From: an uncultured bacterium
GTDB taxonomy: Bacteria > Omnitrophota > Gorgyraeia > Gorgyraeales > Gorgyraeaceae
Direction of reading: 5' to 3'
Assembly: GCA_913009675.1 (NCBI GenBank)
Contig: CAJVXD010000095.1
Span: forward strand, 1-5,630
DNA: 5,630 bases
Shown: in pieces, positions 1 through 5,630 of the stretch
Position numbering within the stretch: position 1 is the stretch's first letter
Layout of the letters: every line of letters starts with the position of its first letter
The notes under the pieces: model-generated
Database searches by the model: none
What the model saw: only the letters and a program-made list of their open reading frames with translations
What the model was told of the DNA's origin: nothing
Translations under genes and position numbers: made by a program

Positions 1-40
1 CTTGGTGTCTCTAGTTCTGTGTAGTACAGACATAGCCAAG
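1..40. other. Non-genomic left tail (sequencing noise, partly P7-like)
   Basis: This stretch lies outside the adapter and has no coding signal. Aligned without gaps to the outer part of the P7 oligo, positions 21-40 match about 12 of 20 bases, so it looks like the same adapter read at falling quality. Positions 1-20 match nothing I recognise. On the complementary strand it is the far end of a read that had already passed through insert, P5 adapter and poly-A, where base calls are unreliable. It should be trimmed and not annotated as genome. Confidence 0.8.
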
Positions 41-86
41 CGTGATATATCGGTGTGACGGGAGTTCAGACGTGCTCTTCCGATCT
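41..86 (-). other. Degraded Illumina P7/index (TruSeq-type) adapter
   Basis: Compared from memory with the reverse complement of the TruSeq indexed adapter, these 46 bases show three substitutions (in the outer P7 part, in the index and in the read-2 primer part) and a two-base deletion in the GTGTGC stretch, and end in the standard GCTCTTCCGATCT. The index reads ATATCGGT. That is one mismatch from the reverse complement of the index at the right end of the window, so both ends appear to come from the same library. This is a technical sequence. Confidence 0.93.
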
Positions 87-93
87 TCTTTCA

Positions 94-113
94 TTTTTTT
101 TTTTTTTTTTTTT
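94..113 (-). repeat. 20-base poly-T (read-past-end poly-A on the other strand)
   Basis: An uninterrupted run of 20 T directly precedes the P5 adapter; seven bases (87-93) separate it from the degraded P7 adapter. On the minus strand this is poly-A immediately after the last base of P5, the pattern seen when a sequencer runs off the end of a short library molecule. It is not a rho-independent terminator: no GC-rich stem is attached, and the flanks are adapter on both sides. Confidence 0.9.
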
Positions 114-171
114 AATGATACGGCGACCACCGAGATCTACACTCTTTCCCTACACGACGCTCTTCCGATCT
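114..171 (+). other. Illumina P5 / TruSeq universal adapter, full length
   Basis: All 58 bases match the TruSeq universal adapter as I know it, beginning AATGATACGGCGACC and ending CGCTCTTCCGATCT at 171. Genomic sequence starts at 172, where the frame becomes recognisably GlgX. Translation of this adapter gives the peptide MIRRPPRSTLF, a familiar contaminant in predicted proteins. It is technical sequence and the true left boundary of biological DNA in this window. Confidence 0.98.
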
Positions 172-972
172 ATTAACTTCATAACCTGTCATGATGGATT
201 TACTCTTCAGGATCTTGTCAGTTATAATGAGAAACATAATCAAACTAACGGCGAAGAAAATAAAGACGGCACTGGTGAAAATCTGAGCTGGAACTGCGGG
301 GTGGAAGGCCCGGCTGATGACGCTGAAGTTTTAAAATTACGCCGGCGTCAGAAACGTAATTTTTTAGCAGCGTTAATATTATCTCAAGGAGTCCCTATGC
401 TTTTAGCCGGTGACGAATTCGGGCGGACCCAGCGGGGAAACAATAACGCCTATTGTCAGGACAATGAAATTTCCTGGGTAAACTGGGATATTGGCCAGCC
501 GGAGCAGGAGCTGTTGGAATTTACAAAATATTTGATTAAGACAACCTACCGGCATCCGGCCCTGCGCCGGAGGAAATTCTTTCATGGCCGCAAAATCCGC
601 GGCTCTAAGGTTAAAGATTTAATCTGGCTTAAGCCTGATGGCGGGGAAATGACAGATAACGATTGGAGTATGCCCTGGGCGCATTGCCTGGGTTTACGTA
701 TAGCCGGTGATGAAATCGACGAAGTTGATGAGCGCGGGAATAAGGTTGTCGATGATACTTTATTGCTCCTCCTCAATGCCTATGATAAAACCGTTTCTTT
801 TATTCTGCCCGGTTCCGCGGTAAAAGCGCAATGGAGGTTGATTTTAGATACTCAGGTTGCGGATGGCCGAAGCGGTGAATTGTTGCTAAAGGCGGGGATT
901 GAGCCATACAGGCTGGCAGCGCGTTCCCTGGTATTATTATGTTTGCGAAAGGCGGGCGGCAAAATTTGTTAG
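172..972 (+). CDS. glgX: Glycogen debranching enzyme (isoamylase-type GH13), 5'-truncated
   Basis: This is the C-terminal 266 residues of a GlgX/TreX-type enzyme, which hydrolyses alpha-1,6 branch linkages of glycogen or limit dextrins in the cytoplasm. The fragment opens with FITCHDGFTLQDLVSYNEKHN, where the HD pair (codons 190-195) is the conserved region containing the third GH13 catalytic aspartate, the transition-state stabiliser. Family hallmarks follow: the NLSWNCGVEGP segment, SQGVPMLLAGDEFGRTQ and GNNNAYCQDNEISWVNWD, then a beta-rich C-terminal domain. Full-length family members are about 650-720 residues, so roughly 60% is missing, including the catalytic nucleophile and the general acid. 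The loss is caused by the contig ending in adapter at 171, not by a mutation in the cell. The frame stays open leftward to an ATG at 55, but that start and the next 39 codons are adapter translation. The stop is TAG at 970-972. A GH15 gene follows after 38 bp on the same strand, suggesting a shared glucan-use transcript. Confidence 0.95.
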   Translation: MNFITCHDGFTLQDLVSYNEKHNQTNGEENKDGTGENLSWNCGVEGPADDAEVLKLRRRQKRNFLAALILSQGVPMLLAGDEFGRTQRGNNNAYCQDNEISWVNWDIGQPEQELLEFTKYLIKTTYRHPALRRRKFFHGRKIRGSKVKDLIWLKPDGGEMTDNDWSMPWAHCLGLRIAGDEIDEVDERGNKVVDDTLLLLLNAYDKTVSFILPGSAVKAQWRLILDTQVADGRSGELLLKAGIEPYRLAARSLVLLCLRKAGGKIC

Positions 973-1010: not shown

Positions 1011-2843
1011 ATGGCAGTGCAGTTTAAGAACCTTGAGGATTACGGAGTAATAGGGAATCTCCAGGCCTGCGCCTTAATTGGCAGAGACGGTTCGATAGAC
1101 TGGCTTTGTTTTCCCTACCTGGAATCGCCTTCCGTATTCGCGGCGTTACTTGACACAGAAAGGGGAGGATATTTTCAGATACAGCCGGCGGCAAAATATG
1201 AATCACTTCAGTCTTATATAGAAAACACAAATATTTTGCAGACCACATTTAATACTCCTTTAGGCGCGGCTGTTATCACGGATTTTATGAAGCCTGAAGG
1301 CCGAAAAGAAGATCATTACGTGAGAGAGGTTTTCAGGAAGGTTGAATGCATAAAAGGAGAAGTAGATCTGGAGATAAGTTTCAGCCCGCGCTTTAAGTAT
1401 GCAAAGGTCCTTCCTGATTTTGAACTCACAGAAACAGGGATTATTGCTCAGACTCAAAATGAAAGTTTGTTTTTGCAGTCACCTGCATCTTTAAAGGTTT
1501 ATGATCACGAAGCCGGGAGTATTATGACGTTGACAGGAGGTAAAACAGCCTGGTATGTTTTACAATACAATCATCGCGTCCCTCTATCTGAGCAAGACTG
1601 CGAGAAGTTGTTGAGTAGTGTCAGGGAATTCTGGCTCCGCTGGGTGCATAACAGCCTGCGTTCCATATATGCCGTAGAAGGACATTGGCATAGTCTTGTC
1701 GTGCGTTCAGGGCTGGTGCTGAAACTCCTGGCAAATCCGGAGACCGGGGCTATTGCCGCAGCGCCCACAACCTCTCTTCCTGAGAAGATTGGCGGTGTGC
1801 GTAACTGGGATTACCGTTATTGCTGGATCAGGGATTCGTCTTTAACTGCCCAGGCGTTGTTTCACATCGGGCATGTTAAAGAATCACAGGACTTTCGCCG
1901 GTGGATGAGAGATATTGTTGGTCAGACGAAAGACCCTTCTTCAATTCAGGTTATGTATGGCCTTGATGGGGAGGTTGACCTTGAAGAACGGATATTGGAG
2001 AATCTTTCAGGGTATAAGGATTCCAGCCCTGTAAGGATTGGGAATGGTGCCGCAAAACAGAAACAGCTCGATATCTATGGCGAGCTGTTAAATGCAGTAT
2101 ATGATACCACCCGTCACGGAGAAGAGATCTCGTTTGAAAATTGGAAGATCATTAAAAAGATTGTAAACTATGTGTGTTTGGCATGGAAAGAAAAGGATTC
2201 AGGGATCTGGGAAGTACGAGGGGGGACCCGCCATTTTGTCTATTCTAAACTTATGTGCTGGGTAGCTCTTGACAGGGCGGTTAAGGTATCGAGGTCTAAA
2301 GGCTTTAGTTCCCCGTTGGAAAAGTGGGAAAAAACAAGAGAGGCGATTAGACAGGCTATCATTGAGAGAGGATTTAGTAAAAGGCTTAATAGCTTTGTTC
2401 AGGCATTTGATTCAGAGACCCTTGATGCAACGAGTCTTCTTATCCCCTTGATGGATTTTCTCTCCTTTGATGACCCCAGGGTGCAGGGCACGATAGAGGC
2501 CGTCTTGAAAAAACTGGTTACGAAGGAAGGGCTGGTTTACAGATATGACTCTGACGATGGCCTTCCGGGCGGAGAGGGTTATTTTGTTCTTTGTTCTTTT
2601 TGGCTTGTCAAGGCCTTAGCCCTTTCGGGAAGGGTAGAAGAGGCGGAAGAAATATTTCTGAAGGTACTTAAATATATAAGTCCGTTAGGACTTCTTGCAG
2701 AAGAGATCGATCCGGAGAATGGCACACAATTAGGAAATTTCCCGCAGGCATTTAGTCATATAGGCCTTATAAACAGCGCCTTATATCTTGGTATCGCAAA
2801 GGGAAAGAAGTATAAAGGCCCGAAACCCATAGGCATATCCTGA
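1011..2843 (+). CDS. Glycoside hydrolase family 15 protein (glucoamylase/trehalase-like)
   Basis: This complete 610-residue protein has the usual length for bacterial GH15 enzymes. An N-terminal beta-sandwich domain of the trehalase-like type (residues ~1-220) opens with LEDYGVIGNLQACALIGRDGSIDWLCFP. The (alpha/alpha)6 catalytic barrel follows (~235-600). Visible GH15 motifs are GGVRNWDYRYCWIRDSS (from 261), PVRIGNGAAKQKQLDIYGE, GIWEVRGG with the probable general acid E401, and LLAEEIDPENG with the probable general base E564, followed by LGNFPQAFSHIGLI. Both catalytic carboxylates are present, so it should be active. GH15 includes glucoamylases, glucodextranases and trehalases; sequence reading alone does not decide the substrate. 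No signal peptide is seen, so it is probably cytoplasmic. It starts 38 bp after the debranching enzyme, which fits a glycogen or trehalose breakdown operon. The ATG at 1011 lacks a strong Shine-Dalgarno (only AAAG nearby), but the conserved N-terminus begins right after it. Confidence 0.93.
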   Translation: MAVQFKNLEDYGVIGNLQACALIGRDGSIDWLCFPYLESPSVFAALLDTERGGYFQIQPAAKYESLQSYIENTNILQTTFNTPLGAAVITDFMKPEGRKEDHYVREVFRKVECIKGEVDLEISFSPRFKYAKVLPDFELTETGIIAQTQNESLFLQSPASLKVYDHEAGSIMTLTGGKTAWYVLQYNHRVPLSEQDCEKLLSSVREFWLRWVHNSLRSIYAVEGHWHSLVVRSGLVLKLLANPETGAIAAAPTTSLPEKIGGVRNWDYRYCWIRDSSLTAQALFHIGHVKESQDFRRWMRDIVGQTKDPSSIQVMYGLDGEVDLEERILENLSGYKDSSPVRIGNGAAKQKQLDIYGELLNAVYDTTRHGEEISFENWKIIKKIVNYVCLAWKEKDSGIWEVRGGTRHFVYSKLMCWVALDRAVKVSRSKGFSSPLEKWEKTREAIRQAIIERGFSKRLNSFVQAFDSETLDATSLLIPLMDFLSFDDPRVQGTIEAVLKKLVTKEGLVYRYDSDDGLPGGEGYFVLCSFWLVKALALSGRVEEAEEIFLKVLKYISPLGLLAEEIDPENGTQLGNFPQAFSHIGLINSALYLGIAKGKKYKGPKPIGIS

Positions 2844-2926
2844 AGGATTGTTTTAGGGATATTCGAATCGCCAGCGTCATAGGCTTGTATGGGTAGAGGC
2901 AGACGGATTGAAAGGAAATCTTAATA
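2844..2926 (+). other. Intergenic gap before the two-component pair
   Basis: These 83 bp separate the GH15 gene from the response regulator and could hold a promoter. There is an 8-base perfect palindrome, ATTCGAAT, at 2861-2868, which could be a small operator or chance. I could not assign convincing -35/-10 boxes, and there is no hairpin plus T-run, so no terminator is called for the upstream gene. Read-through from the glucan genes is possible. Confidence 0.4.
2911..2916 (+). promoter_or_regulatory. Shine-Dalgarno for the response regulator
   Basis: AAAGGA lies 10 bases before the ATG at 2927. It supports that start, as does the canonical receiver N-terminus MRILVIEDE that begins there. 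Confidence 0.6.
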
Positions 2927-3598
2927 ATGCGCATTTTAGTTATTGAAGATGAGAAAAAGATAGCAAGTTTTATTAAGAGAGGGCTTAAGGAAAACAACTA
3001 CACGGTTGATGTCGCCTTTGACGGAGACAAAGGACTTTTCCTGGCCGAGATTAACCCCTATGATTTAATTGTGCTCGATATTATGTTACCGGGCAAAGAC
3101 GGTCTATTTATCTGCCGGGAGCTTAGAAAGAAGAATATAGGTGTACCGATTTTAATCCTGACAGCAAGGGATGACCTTGAAGATAAGATATCCGGCTTAG
3201 ACTCAGGCGCCGATGATTACCTGACTAAACCATTTGCTTTCGGAGAGTTTTTAGCCAGGGTCAGGGCCTTGATACGCAGAAAAGCCGATGTTAAGACCAC
3301 CAGACTTAAGGTAGCTGATTTGGAATTAGACCAGTTAACCCACAGGGTTAGACGCGCAGGCAGGGAGATTGAACTTACCCGCACTGAATACGCCCTTCTT
3401 GAATATATGATGCTCAATGCCAACGAGGTTGTTACCCGGACCATGATCTCAGAACATGTCTGGAATGAAGATTTCGACAGTTTTTCTAATGTAATCAATG
3501 TGTACGTCAATTACCTTCGCAAAAAGATTGATAGCGGATTTGAGAAAAAGCTTATCCATTCCATCCGCGGGACAGGTTATATTTTAAGGGAAGAGTGA
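2927..3598 (+). CDS. OmpR/PhoB-family DNA-binding response regulator
   Basis: This complete 223-residue protein is a cytoplasmic transcription factor activated by phosphotransfer from its partner kinase. The receiver domain (~1-115) has the acidic pair E7/D8, the phosphoacceptor D51 in VLDIMLPGKDG, the switch threonine T79 in LILTAR, the aromatic switch residue Y98, and K101 in the TKPF motif, so all phosphorylation-site residues are intact. The winged-helix domain (~125-221) shows the typical LTRTEYALLEYMM segment, the recognition helix region SNVINVYVNYLRKKID and the C-terminal hairpin IRGTGYILRE. The general pattern resembles the CusR/CopR-like subgroup, many of which respond to metals, but that does not fix the stimulus here. 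The kinase gene starts one base after the stop codon, so the two are almost certainly cotranscribed and cognate. Autoregulation is common in this family; the 83-bp upstream gap could carry its binding site, though I see no clear direct repeats. Confidence 0.95.
   Translation: MRILVIEDEKKIASFIKRGLKENNYTVDVAFDGDKGLFLAEINPYDLIVLDIMLPGKDGLFICRELRKKNIGVPILILTARDDLEDKISGLDSGADDYLTKPFAFGEFLARVRALIRRKADVKTTRLKVADLELDQLTHRVRRAGREIELTRTEYALLEYMMLNANEVVTRTMISEHVWNEDFDSFSNVINVYVNYLRKKIDSGFEKKLIHSIRGTGYILREE
3586..3591 (+). promoter_or_regulatory. Shine-Dalgarno for the kinase, inside the regulator's 3' end
   Basis: AAGGGA sits 8 bases before the kinase ATG at 3600 and within the last codons of the response regulator. 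This fits translational coupling of the pair. Confidence 0.7.
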
Positions 3599-3599
3599 T

Positions 3600-4754
3600 A
3601 TGCAGCTTAATTCCATCCGTTTTAAGACAACTATTCTTTACTCGAGCATTTTGGCTGTAATCCTGGTTATCTTCGGTGCCATTATTTATATCAGTATTAG
3701 CTATATACTTTACCGTGATTTGGACCATGACTTAAAAGTCAAGGCTGAAGAGATTGTGTCTATCTTACATGCATATGAAGAGGTTGGACAACTTGAGAAC
3801 CATCCTTTAGGACGCATATTAGATATACTCAGAAAGGGAGAAACCGAAGGTATAAGTGAGAAGGTAGTCATTGATGACCTATGGCGGAAGGAATTTAATC
3901 TGCTGGATCTTAAAAATGATTATATCAACGTAGTGAATATTAATGGGGTCTCTCTATTTATTTCGAATAATTTTACGGAAGACGTCGCTTCTTTATTTAG
4001 GAAGCAGTGCCCCTTTTCATTAGAAAGGACTGTTTGTAAGAACGTTGTTGCCGGCAGGACTAAACTGCGGGTTGTCAATTTACCTGCTTCCTATTATCGC
4101 TCTCGGTTGGCCATACAGGTCGCTGCACCTTTAGAGCCCATTACCAAAGAATTAGCTAACATTTTATTTTTTATTATTATCTCAGCACTTATCCTGCTTA
4201 TCTTGACAAGTTTCTTTGGTGATATTTTAGCTCGTAATATTCTCAAGCCGGTTGTGGCTGTTTCAAATTTAGCTGATAAAATTACCCACAAGGACCTGAG
4301 CTCGCGGATCCAGGAGCAGCAAACAGATAAGGAGATGAGGCACTTAGTCAGTTCATTTAATGCAATGATTGACCGCTTAGAGAAATCATTCAGGCATATT
4401 AATGAATTCAGCTCCCATGTAGCCCATGAGCTTAAAACCCCCCTGGCTATTATAAAAGGAGAGATGGAACTCGCCTTAGGACAAGATAGAGATTTGGAAG
4501 AATACAAAAGGGTCCTGGAGGGGTGCCTTGAGGAGATAGACAGGATAATACGAATTATACGGGATCTCCATCTTTTAGCCAAGTTAGACTATAAGCTGGA
4601 TATCTTCAAATTTGAGAAGTTTAATATTGTTCAGTTTCTCAATGATATCCATGAACATAGTAAGATTTTAGCTTCATCGAAAGATATCAAAGTAAAACTA
4701 AATGCCCCTGAGAAGGATATTTTTATCAGATCGGCGCTCACTAATAGTGATTAG
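3600..4754 (+). CDS. Membrane sensor histidine kinase, truncated in this window
   Basis: This is the N-terminal ~377 residues of a transmembrane sensor kinase partnered with the response regulator one base upstream. In order: TM1 (~11-37), an extracytoplasmic sensor of about 150 residues with two cysteines (C137, C146), TM2 (~187-208), a HAMP linker (~209-262), and a HisKA dimerisation domain with phosphoacceptor H276 in SSHVAHELKTPLAI. Family members run to about 450-480 residues, with an ATP-binding domain carrying N, G1, F and G2 boxes. Here homology stops at about R377 (codon 4728-4730), just where that domain should begin, and seven unrelated residues lead to a TAG stop at 4752-4754. As drawn it could not autophosphorylate. 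Because an unrelated O-antigen ligase fragment begins at the same spot in another frame, I infer a chimeric contig join or a real deletion, not a natural short kinase. The stimulus cannot be read from the sequence. Confidence 0.9.
   Translation: MQLNSIRFKTTILYSSILAVILVIFGAIIYISISYILYRDLDHDLKVKAEEIVSILHAYEEVGQLENHPLGRILDILRKGETEGISEKVVIDDLWRKEFNLLDLKNDYINVVNINGVSLFISNNFTEDVASLFRKQCPFSLERTVCKNVVAGRTKLRVVNLPASYYRSRLAIQVAAPLEPITKELANILFFIIISALILLILTSFFGDILARNILKPVVAVSNLADKITHKDLSSRIQEQQTDKEMRHLVSSFNAMIDRLEKSFRHINEFSSHVAHELKTPLAIIKGEMELALGQDRDLEEYKRVLEGCLEEIDRIIRIIRDLHLLAKLDYKLDIFKFEKFNIVQFLNDIHEHSKILASSKDIKVKLNAPEKDIFIRSALTNSD
4728..4740. other. Chimeric junction between kinase and O-antigen ligase fragments
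   Basis: Kinase homology ends and O-antigen ligase-like sequence begins within these few bases, in a different frame and without intergenic DNA. The bases at 4728-4734 are AGATCGG, identical to the first seven bases of the Illumina adapter complement that appears in full at 5433. A short adapter remnant that escaped trimming could have bridged two unrelated reads. A 7-mer match alone is weak, since chance would give one roughly every 8 kb when both strands are counted; its exact placement at the protein break is what matters. A small inverted repeat, CACTAATAGTG (4739-4749), lies next to it. A genuine deletion or rearrangement is the alternative. Confidence 0.65.
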
Positions 4755-5432
4755 AGCCGTTTGCATCTTAAGCAGTTTAGTAGCTCTCTTTGGAATCGTC
4801 GAATATGTTTCCGGCAGGAATTTTATATATGAATTTATAATAAACAACCCGTACTATAGACGGTATGTCATTGTCGGACGCCCTATGTCTACGCAGTTAC
4901 ACCCTCCGATACTGGGTTCTTTCTTACTTGCTTGTTTGCCGTTTGCCATTTTCTTGTTAAAGGATAAGAATAAAACCTTTCGCTATTTGGCAGTTCTTGC
5001 GCTGTTCGCAGAGACCTTTATTATCATACTTACTCGTTCAAGAGGTGTATTTTTAGGGTTGGTTGTCATGATATCGCTCTATCTATGGAATAAAAAAAAG
5101 TCATTTTTCTTATCATTTCTGGTATTCCTGACCAGCGTTATTATTCTTTTTTCTTATCTTAATAACTCACCCTTTTATAGATTTGGTTTCAATGGCATGA
5201 TCTTCGGAAGCCGCAACAGCATTTTTTCAGAATATAGGTATAGAAGGATATCTATGACTTTTAATATGTTGAAAGACCATCCATTTTTCGGGGTCGGCTT
5301 CAAGAATTTTAGAGTAAAATTTAATAGATACAAGATCGACAAGAATGAAAATACGCCGATGGAATTCAGGATACCCGACAACATGTACCTGACTCTGCTG
5401 GCAGAGACAGGCGTAGTGGGTTTTTCCGGTTT
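4735..5432 (+). CDS. O-antigen ligase/polymerase family membrane protein, internal fragment
   Basis: About 232 residues belong to a polytopic inner-membrane protein of the O-antigen ligase/Wzy polymerase superfamily (Wzy_C-like), whose members join or polymerise lipid-linked oligosaccharides on the periplasmic side. Several hydrophobic segments are visible: SLIVIRAVCILSSLVALFG, PPILGSFLLACLPFAIFLL, a segment before LTRSRG, and SFFLSFLVFLTSVIILF. Family signatures are the TRSRGVFLGL motif and, after a periplasmic-loop-like region, KDHPFFGVGFKNF followed by PDNMYLTLLAETGVVG. Typical proteins exceed 400 residues, so both ends are missing: the N-terminal helices at the junction near 4735, and the last helices at 5433, where adapter begins. 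The reading frame is open from an ATG at 4702 to 5499, but its first 11 codons or so are kinase-derived DNA and its last 21 or so are adapter. No true start is visible. Ligase versus polymerase cannot be decided from the fragment. Confidence 0.88.
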
Positions 5433-5498
5433 AGATCGGAAGAGCACACGTCTGAACTCCAGTCACACTGATATATCTCGTATGCCGTCTTCTGCTTG
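5433..5498 (+). other. Illumina TruSeq indexed (P7) adapter, full length
   Basis: The sequence begins AGATCGGAAGAGCACACG, continues through the read-2 primer site to CAGTCAC (ends 5466), carries the index ACTGATAT (5467-5474; as I recall, TruSeq index 25), and ends with ATCTCGTATGCCG and TCTTCTGCTTG. No mismatch is apparent against the adapter as I know it. Its translation gives RKSTRLNSSH and SRMPSSA, peptides often seen as contaminants at the ends of predicted proteins. It marks the true right end of biological DNA. Confidence 0.98.
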
Positions 5499-5513
5499 AA
5501 AAAAAAAAAAAAA
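5499..5513 (+). repeat. 15-base poly-A after the adapter end
   Basis: A run of 15 A begins at the first base past the end of the P7 oligo. This is the usual signature of sequencing beyond the end of the molecule, and it mirrors the poly-T at 94-113. Confidence 0.93.
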
Positions 5514-5630
5514 CAACTAACAAACTCGCTCACTAGTACCCATTCACGTCATGTAGTCCACCATCCCATTACATCACGACGTCTATCAACTTAACATCCA
5601 AGACAGGATCGCTTCATCCTACATCGCATT
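5514..5630. other. Post-adapter tail, not biological
   Basis: These 117 bases follow adapter plus poly-A. They contain only about 12 G, are rich in C, A and T, and have no open reading frame, repeat or motif that I can recognise. Strong base bias after the end of a library molecule is expected of base-calling noise. I see no gene or regulatory site here and would trim it. Confidence 0.85.

What the first reader, a model, noticed from the sequence alone, without database searches (positions are those of the whole stretch)
4702..4760. Histidine kinase and O-antigen ligase truncated at one point: probable misassembly
The kinase stops matching its family at about 4730, exactly where the ATP-binding domain should start. 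Recognisable O-antigen ligase sequence starts by about 4740 in another frame. Two unrelated membrane proteins are each missing the part facing the join, and the bases AGATCGG at 4728-4734 equal the adapter start. Together this suggests a chimeric join, so gene neighbourhood across this point should not be trusted.
Basis: partly seen in the sequence, partly recalled or inferred. Interest (0 to 1): 0.7.

Follow-up and report, generated by a model that had tools for sequence, protein, structure and literature searches.

The report
Probable false join of two genes
Half of a sensor-kinase gene sits directly against half of an unrelated sugar-polymer ligase gene, in a draft bacterial genome full of untrimmed sequencing adapters, so the junction is most likely a sequencing or assembly error and not real biology.

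Summary
The window is one whole contig (C95) of a 225-contig draft genome, probably an Omnitrophota bacterium. Kinase similarity stops at base 4727: 27 of the last 30 bases match the closest relative, then 6 of the next 30. The ATP-binding domain is missing. The ligase lacks about its first 95 residues. AGATCGG, the start of the Illumina adapter, lies at 4728-4734.

A false join is the best explanation. The draft holds 197 exact 13-base adapters; 58 relatives together hold 5. Both contig ends are adapter. Contig C87 of the same draft has an internal adapter, identical over 79 bases to this contig's 3' one, cutting the frame of a DNA methylase gene. No relative examined has kinase and ligase as neighbours.

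One correction: in the ligase frame TCAGATCGG (Ser-Asp-Arg) fits the ligase family (58 of 20,000 random stretches score as well), so AGATCGG may be native ligase DNA and the join probably ran through a short shared stretch. A real microhomology deletion is not excluded; no reads were available.

Verdict: artefact, low interest. Do not trust gene order across 4710-4740.

The parts
1..171 (-). Untrimmed Illumina adapter and read-through noise at the 5' contig end: P7-side adapter with errors, poly-T, P5-side adapter
   Evidence: exact AGATCGGAAGAGC at 74-86 and 159-171 on the - strand; sequence read directly; P5/P7 names recalled
172..972 (+). 3' part of a glycogen-debranching/isoamylase-type gene, cut by the adapter
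   Evidence: Isoamylase_C PF21331, just above its cut-off
1011..2843 (+). Complete GH15 family gene (TREH_N + Glyco_hydro_15)
   Evidence: Pfam; 64% identical relative in G188
2927..3598 (+). Complete OmpR-type response regulator
   Evidence: Response_reg + Trans_reg_C; together with the kinase 85.4% DNA identity to G196
3600..4727 (+). Histidine kinase, first 376 codons (HAMP, HisKA); ATP-binding domain missing
   Evidence: dN/dS 0.20 against G196 over 376 codons
4711..4734 (+). Probable join zone: kinase DNA up to 4727, ligase-like residues RRIFLSD (4711-4731) in the other frame
   Evidence: profile score 7.87, reached by 20 of 20,000 random open stretches
4728..4734 (+). AGATCGG, first 7 bases of the Illumina adapter; may equally be native ligase sequence
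4735..5432 (+). Middle part of an O-antigen ligase (Wzy_C) gene, N-terminal and C-terminal parts missing
5433..5630 (+). Untrimmed adapter with index ACTGATAT, poly-A and read-through noise at the 3' contig end
   Evidence: exact 13-mer at 5433-5445; first 79 bases identical to the internal adapter of contig C87

Best explanation
The junction near 4728 is most likely a false join, made in library preparation or assembly, between a read running out of a sensor-kinase gene and a read from an unrelated O-antigen ligase gene. The draft was built from reads whose adapters were not trimmed (shown by the adapters left in it). The two pieces probably met through a short shared stretch of up to about 20 bases (4715-4734, GGATATTTTTATCAGATCGG): kinase DNA plus the first adapter bases on one side, ligase DNA that happens to read nearly the same on the other (inferred). 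The true kinase would continue into its ATP-binding domain and the true ligase would have about 95 more residues upstream (inferred from relatives).
For: Sharp loss of kinase similarity at 4727 (27 of 30, then 6 of 30 bases). In one search (285 genomes, E <= 1e-90, a cut-off that itself disfavours short copies) 43 of 43 other kinase matches reach residue 487-489 of the 489-residue query; the window stops at 379. In one search 10 of 11 other ligase matches start at residue 1-12; the 11th starts at 67, near its contig's edge; the window starts at 95. No ligase in 36 kinase loci (35 distinct), none in 12 wider kinase neighbourhoods, and no such kinase or regulator in 7 ligase neighbourhoods. Adapter 13-mers: 197 in this draft, 5 in 58 other relatives. 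Same draft, contig C87: a full internal adapter cuts the frame of a DNA methylase gene matched only to profile position 182 of 324; contig C67 has the other adapter plus poly-A inside its start. Kinase under purifying selection, dN/dS 0.20, with no stop or frameshift before the break. AGATCGG exactly at the break: non-adapter copies number 94 in 1.307 Mb on both strands (291 less 197), about 4e-5 per position and strand.
Against: Only 7 adapter bases are present here, unlike C87, and they may be native ligase sequence. The overlap itself is only suggested: several stretches were scored, and the bases right of the join, which should be pure ligase, fit the profile only weakly (4735-4758: 883 of 20,000 random stretches as good; 4741-4758: 1,377). 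AGATCGG inside this draft is usually ordinary: 27 of 38 sampled sites lie at least 50 codons inside an open frame. The missing halves were not found elsewhere in the draft, nor a close fragment of the kinase C-terminus in the protein database (identity up to 57% in the 120 of 377 listed), as a real deletion would also predict; but the draft is only 73.6% complete. GC of the two sides is alike (0.384 and 0.379), so composition does not show two sources. Truncated kinases exist: P0030 (388 aa, contigs up to 56 kb) ends about ten residues later, also without HATPase_c; P0045 (384 aa, a 1,551-base contig) lacks it too.
Confidence: 0.87

Rival explanations
1. A real deletion or rearrangement in the organism joined the two genes at a short shared sequence (about 11-17 bases, ending at 4727), leaving both probably non-functional; AGATCGG is then ligase sequence and its likeness to the adapter is chance.
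For: Ligase-like residues RRIFLSD extend left over the kinase DNA (20 of 20,000 random stretches as good; for the kinase-only part RRIFL 404 of 20,000), which is what a microhomology join would look like; neither missing half is in the draft.
Against: Needs the 7-base adapter start to fall at the break by chance; no relative examined has the two genes as neighbours; no other lesion in the kinase; adapters inside contigs are shown in the same draft.
Confidence: 0.1
2. A sub-case of the best explanation: a chimeric molecule made during PCR or ligation in the library, not an assembler error; a strand ending a few bases into the adapter primed on the ligase gene.
For: Would give the same AGATCGG at the break and the same overlap; contig tips include read-through noise, so single reads could shape a contig (inferred).
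Against: Cannot be told from an assembler join without reads; its share is already counted within the best explanation.
Confidence: 0.25
3. Not exclusive with the others: the left part of the contig belongs to a different organism than the rest of the draft.
For: Regulator and kinase are 85.4% identical in DNA to a genome of another family, G196, while among the 18 other genomes of the own family only G014 has a match at E <= 1e-60, partial and 38%; the second-best database hit of the ligase, P0122, is encoded by G001 of the own family.
Against: Horizontal transfer would give the same picture; the ligase match is only about 50%; GC is similar. Similarity of the rest of the draft to G196 was not tested.
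Confidence: 0.3

Closest known systems
Adapter contamination of public microbial genome assemblies (Moeller et al. 2024, PMC11536531; abstract, background, results, discussion and methods read)
   Same: TruSeq adapter AGATCGGAAGAG at contig ends, reverse complement at contig starts; reported to lower assembly accuracy and contiguity
   Different: The paper describes adapters concentrated at contig ends and proposes that they break contigs; here adapters also lie inside contigs (C87, C67), and C95 has an abrupt junction at the adapter's first 7 bases
OmpR-family sensor histidine kinase of Omnitrophota (P0002, genome G196)
   Same: 79% protein identity, HAMP and HisKA, preceded by its response regulator
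   Different: the window copy stops before HATPase_c
Wzy_C O-antigen ligase family protein (P0121-P0127)
   Same: about 50% identity over the Wzy_C part
   Different: the window copy lacks its first 95 or so residues and its C-terminus

Membership tests
Adapter-contaminated assembly | Exact adapter 13-mers far above chance | tested here: met
   197 in the draft, reversed control 0; 58 relatives hold 5
Adapter-mediated chimeric contig | Adapter bases at the break between two unrelated sequences | tested here: inconclusive
   AGATCGG at 4728-4734, but these bases also fit the ligase family
Adapter-mediated chimeric contig | Adapter found inside other contigs of the same assembly | tested here: met
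   C87:1464 and C67:128; the far sides were not identified by homology (no Pfam match for C87; C67 not tested)
Adapter-mediated chimeric contig | No reads properly spanning the break | not testable with these tools
   reads not held
Functional sensor histidine kinase | HATPase_c ATP-binding domain after HisKA | tested here: not met
   absent in the window, present in P0002-P0029
Functional Wzy_C O-antigen ligase | Full-length membrane protein of about 400 aa | tested here: not met
   starts at residue 95-97 of relatives and is cut by the adapter at 5433

The most novel reading that the evidence does not exclude
A genuine microhomology deletion fused the start of a sensor kinase to the middle of an O-antigen ligase gene in this lineage, switching off a two-component sensor and a surface-polymer ligase in one event.
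Probability: 0.1. Interest if true: 0.2.

Novelty: not a real feature. Interest (0 to 1): 0.08.

Why it matters
It warns that gene order in this draft cannot be trusted across such points. Adapters are not confined to contig ends: at least two other contigs carry full adapters inside. Adapter-coded peptides have also entered protein databases. Annotators should trim and re-check this assembly before using it for operon or domain-fusion claims.

Tried and rejected
Kinase continuing past 4727 in a shifted frame: a gapped alignment to G196 ran on to 4743, but local alignment of the relatives' next 60 bases to 4728-4787 scored no better than shuffles (483, 264 and 245 of 500 shuffles reached the score for three relatives). 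Rejected.

AGATCGG as a systematic scar of false joins: not supported. Of the sites listed (contigs C1-C50 only, a part of 291), 38 non-adapter sites were read; one further internal site, C35:7601, was not taken. 27 lie at least 50 codons inside an open frame (either strand); 11 do not, of which 1 is a degenerate adapter at a contig end. The other 10 were not checked by homology.

Missing halves elsewhere: not found. only scores proteins of 0.55-1.75 times the 118-residue query and listed 120 of 377.

A first script for the ligase profile failed because the aligner misplaced the anchor; it was redone with pairwise anchoring, 42 of 42 ligases longer than 350 aa.

Literature: searches (listings seen; one paper, PMC11536531, read). 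The adapter peptide strings RKSTRLNSSH and STRLNSSH gave 0 papers.

Full report
What was checked. The window is the whole of contig C95 of an unnamed draft genome of 1,307,308 bases in 225 contigs, 73.6% complete. Named protein relatives such as P0002 and P0135 come from Omnitrophota, so the organism is probably of that phylum (inference). From left to right the contig holds adapter, the end of an isoamylase-type gene, a GH15 gene, an OmpR-type regulator, a histidine kinase, an O-antigen ligase fragment and adapter.

The break is real and sharp. The kinase has HAMP and HisKA but no HATPase_c. Its nearest relative, P0002, is 489 aa and 79% identical, and the window leaves it after KDIFI, at base 4727. 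At DNA level against that relative's genome (G196), 27 of the last 30 bases agree and 6 of the next 30. Of 44 kinase matches at E <= 1e-90 in 285 genomes of the phylum, the 43 besides the window all reach residue 487-489; the window stops at 379. That cut-off disfavours short copies, so truncated relatives could be missed. The ligase has the opposite fault: alignment begins at residue 95-97 of about 407. Ten of the 11 other ligase matches begin at residues 1-12; the 11th begins at 67, near where its contig begins.

The genes were not seen as neighbours elsewhere. No ligase was found in 36 kinase loci (L039-L044, L119, L125-L153; L042 and L131 are one contig, so 35 distinct; flanks of about 1.5 or 6 kb, less at contig ends). 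None was found in 12 wider kinase neighbourhoods of 9 to 20 kb, and no kinase or regulator of this kind in 7 ligase neighbourhoods of 12 to 20 kb. The left side itself looks natural: a GH15 gene, an unassigned ORF, the regulator and the kinase follow one another in G136 (L195). In G196 the kinase is followed by a receiver-domain protein, a GGDEF protein and an HD protein.

The draft is heavily contaminated. AGATCGGAAGAGC occurs 197 times in it and its reversed control never. In 58 other relatives it occurs 5 times in 3 genomes. Of the places listed (contigs C3-C92 only), C87:1464 is the one clearly internal by position; contig lengths were seen for only some of them. The tips of the window contain not only adapter but poly-A or poly-T and noise beyond it, so single reads were probably allowed to shape contigs (inference).

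Adapters inside contigs are demonstrated in the same draft. Contig C87 carries at base 1464 a full adapter identical over 79 bases, index included, to the one at this contig's 3' end. It cuts the frame of a DNA methylase gene that matches its profile only to position 182 of 324. Beyond the poly-A another open frame lies on the opposite strand, without a Pfam match. Contig C67 shows the other adapter and poly-A between two stretches within its first 260 bases; these were not tested by homology.

What AGATCGG means here. Non-adapter copies number 94 on both strands of the draft (291 less 197), about 4e-5 per position and strand; a first-order model of the window gives 7e-5. A copy exactly at the break is therefore unlikely by chance, though the test is post hoc. 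However, in the ligase frame TCAGATCGG reads Ser-Asp-Arg, and this fits the profile of 42 ligases (58 of 20,000 random open stretches score as well); RRIFLSD over 4711-4731 scores 7.87 (20 of 20,000). Seven stretches were scored, and those just right of the join fit only weakly (4735-4758: 883 of 20,000; 4741-4758: 1,377; 4735-4740: 4,055). So ligase similarity probably overlaps the kinase DNA, but this is not proven. The likeliest account is a join through a short shared stretch, kinase plus adapter start on one side and native ligase on the other. This step is inferred. The same overlap would also suit a real microhomology deletion, which is why that rival keeps 10%.

What could not be settled. 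No reads are held. The missing halves are absent from the draft and no close fragment of the kinase C-terminus was found in the protein database. Composition does not separate the sides (GC 0.384 and 0.379). Truncated kinases of this family exist (P0030 on contigs up to 56 kb, P0045 on a short contig).

Known context. Adapter contamination of public microbial assemblies, concentrated at contig ends and lowering their accuracy, was described by Moeller et al. 2024 (PMC11536531). The present case is an ordinary instance, with internal adapters as the added detail.

Noticed in passing
L223 (G000:C87) 1464-1542: Full TruSeq adapter plus poly-A inside a contig, cutting the frame of a DNA methylase gene: a second, clearer sign of a false join in the same draft.
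   Followed up: yes
L224 (G000:C67) 128-200: P5-side adapter plus poly-A inside the contig start, between two other stretches of sequence.
   Followed up: partly
5433-5496; proteins P0168-P0175: The adapter read as protein gives DRKSTRLNSSHTDISRMPSSA, and eight otherwise unlike short database proteins end in exactly this peptide.
   Followed up: partly
2911-4727: Regulator and kinase are 85.4% identical in DNA to a genome of another family (G196), while the own family has one partial 38% match in 18 other genomes: recent transfer or mis-binning.
   Followed up: partly
4738-4750: Perfect 13-base inverted repeat TCACTAATAGTGA just right of the join; probably chance.
   Followed up: no
P0030: A database kinase of the same family (388 aa, contigs up to 56 kb) also ends before the ATP-binding domain.
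   Followed up: no
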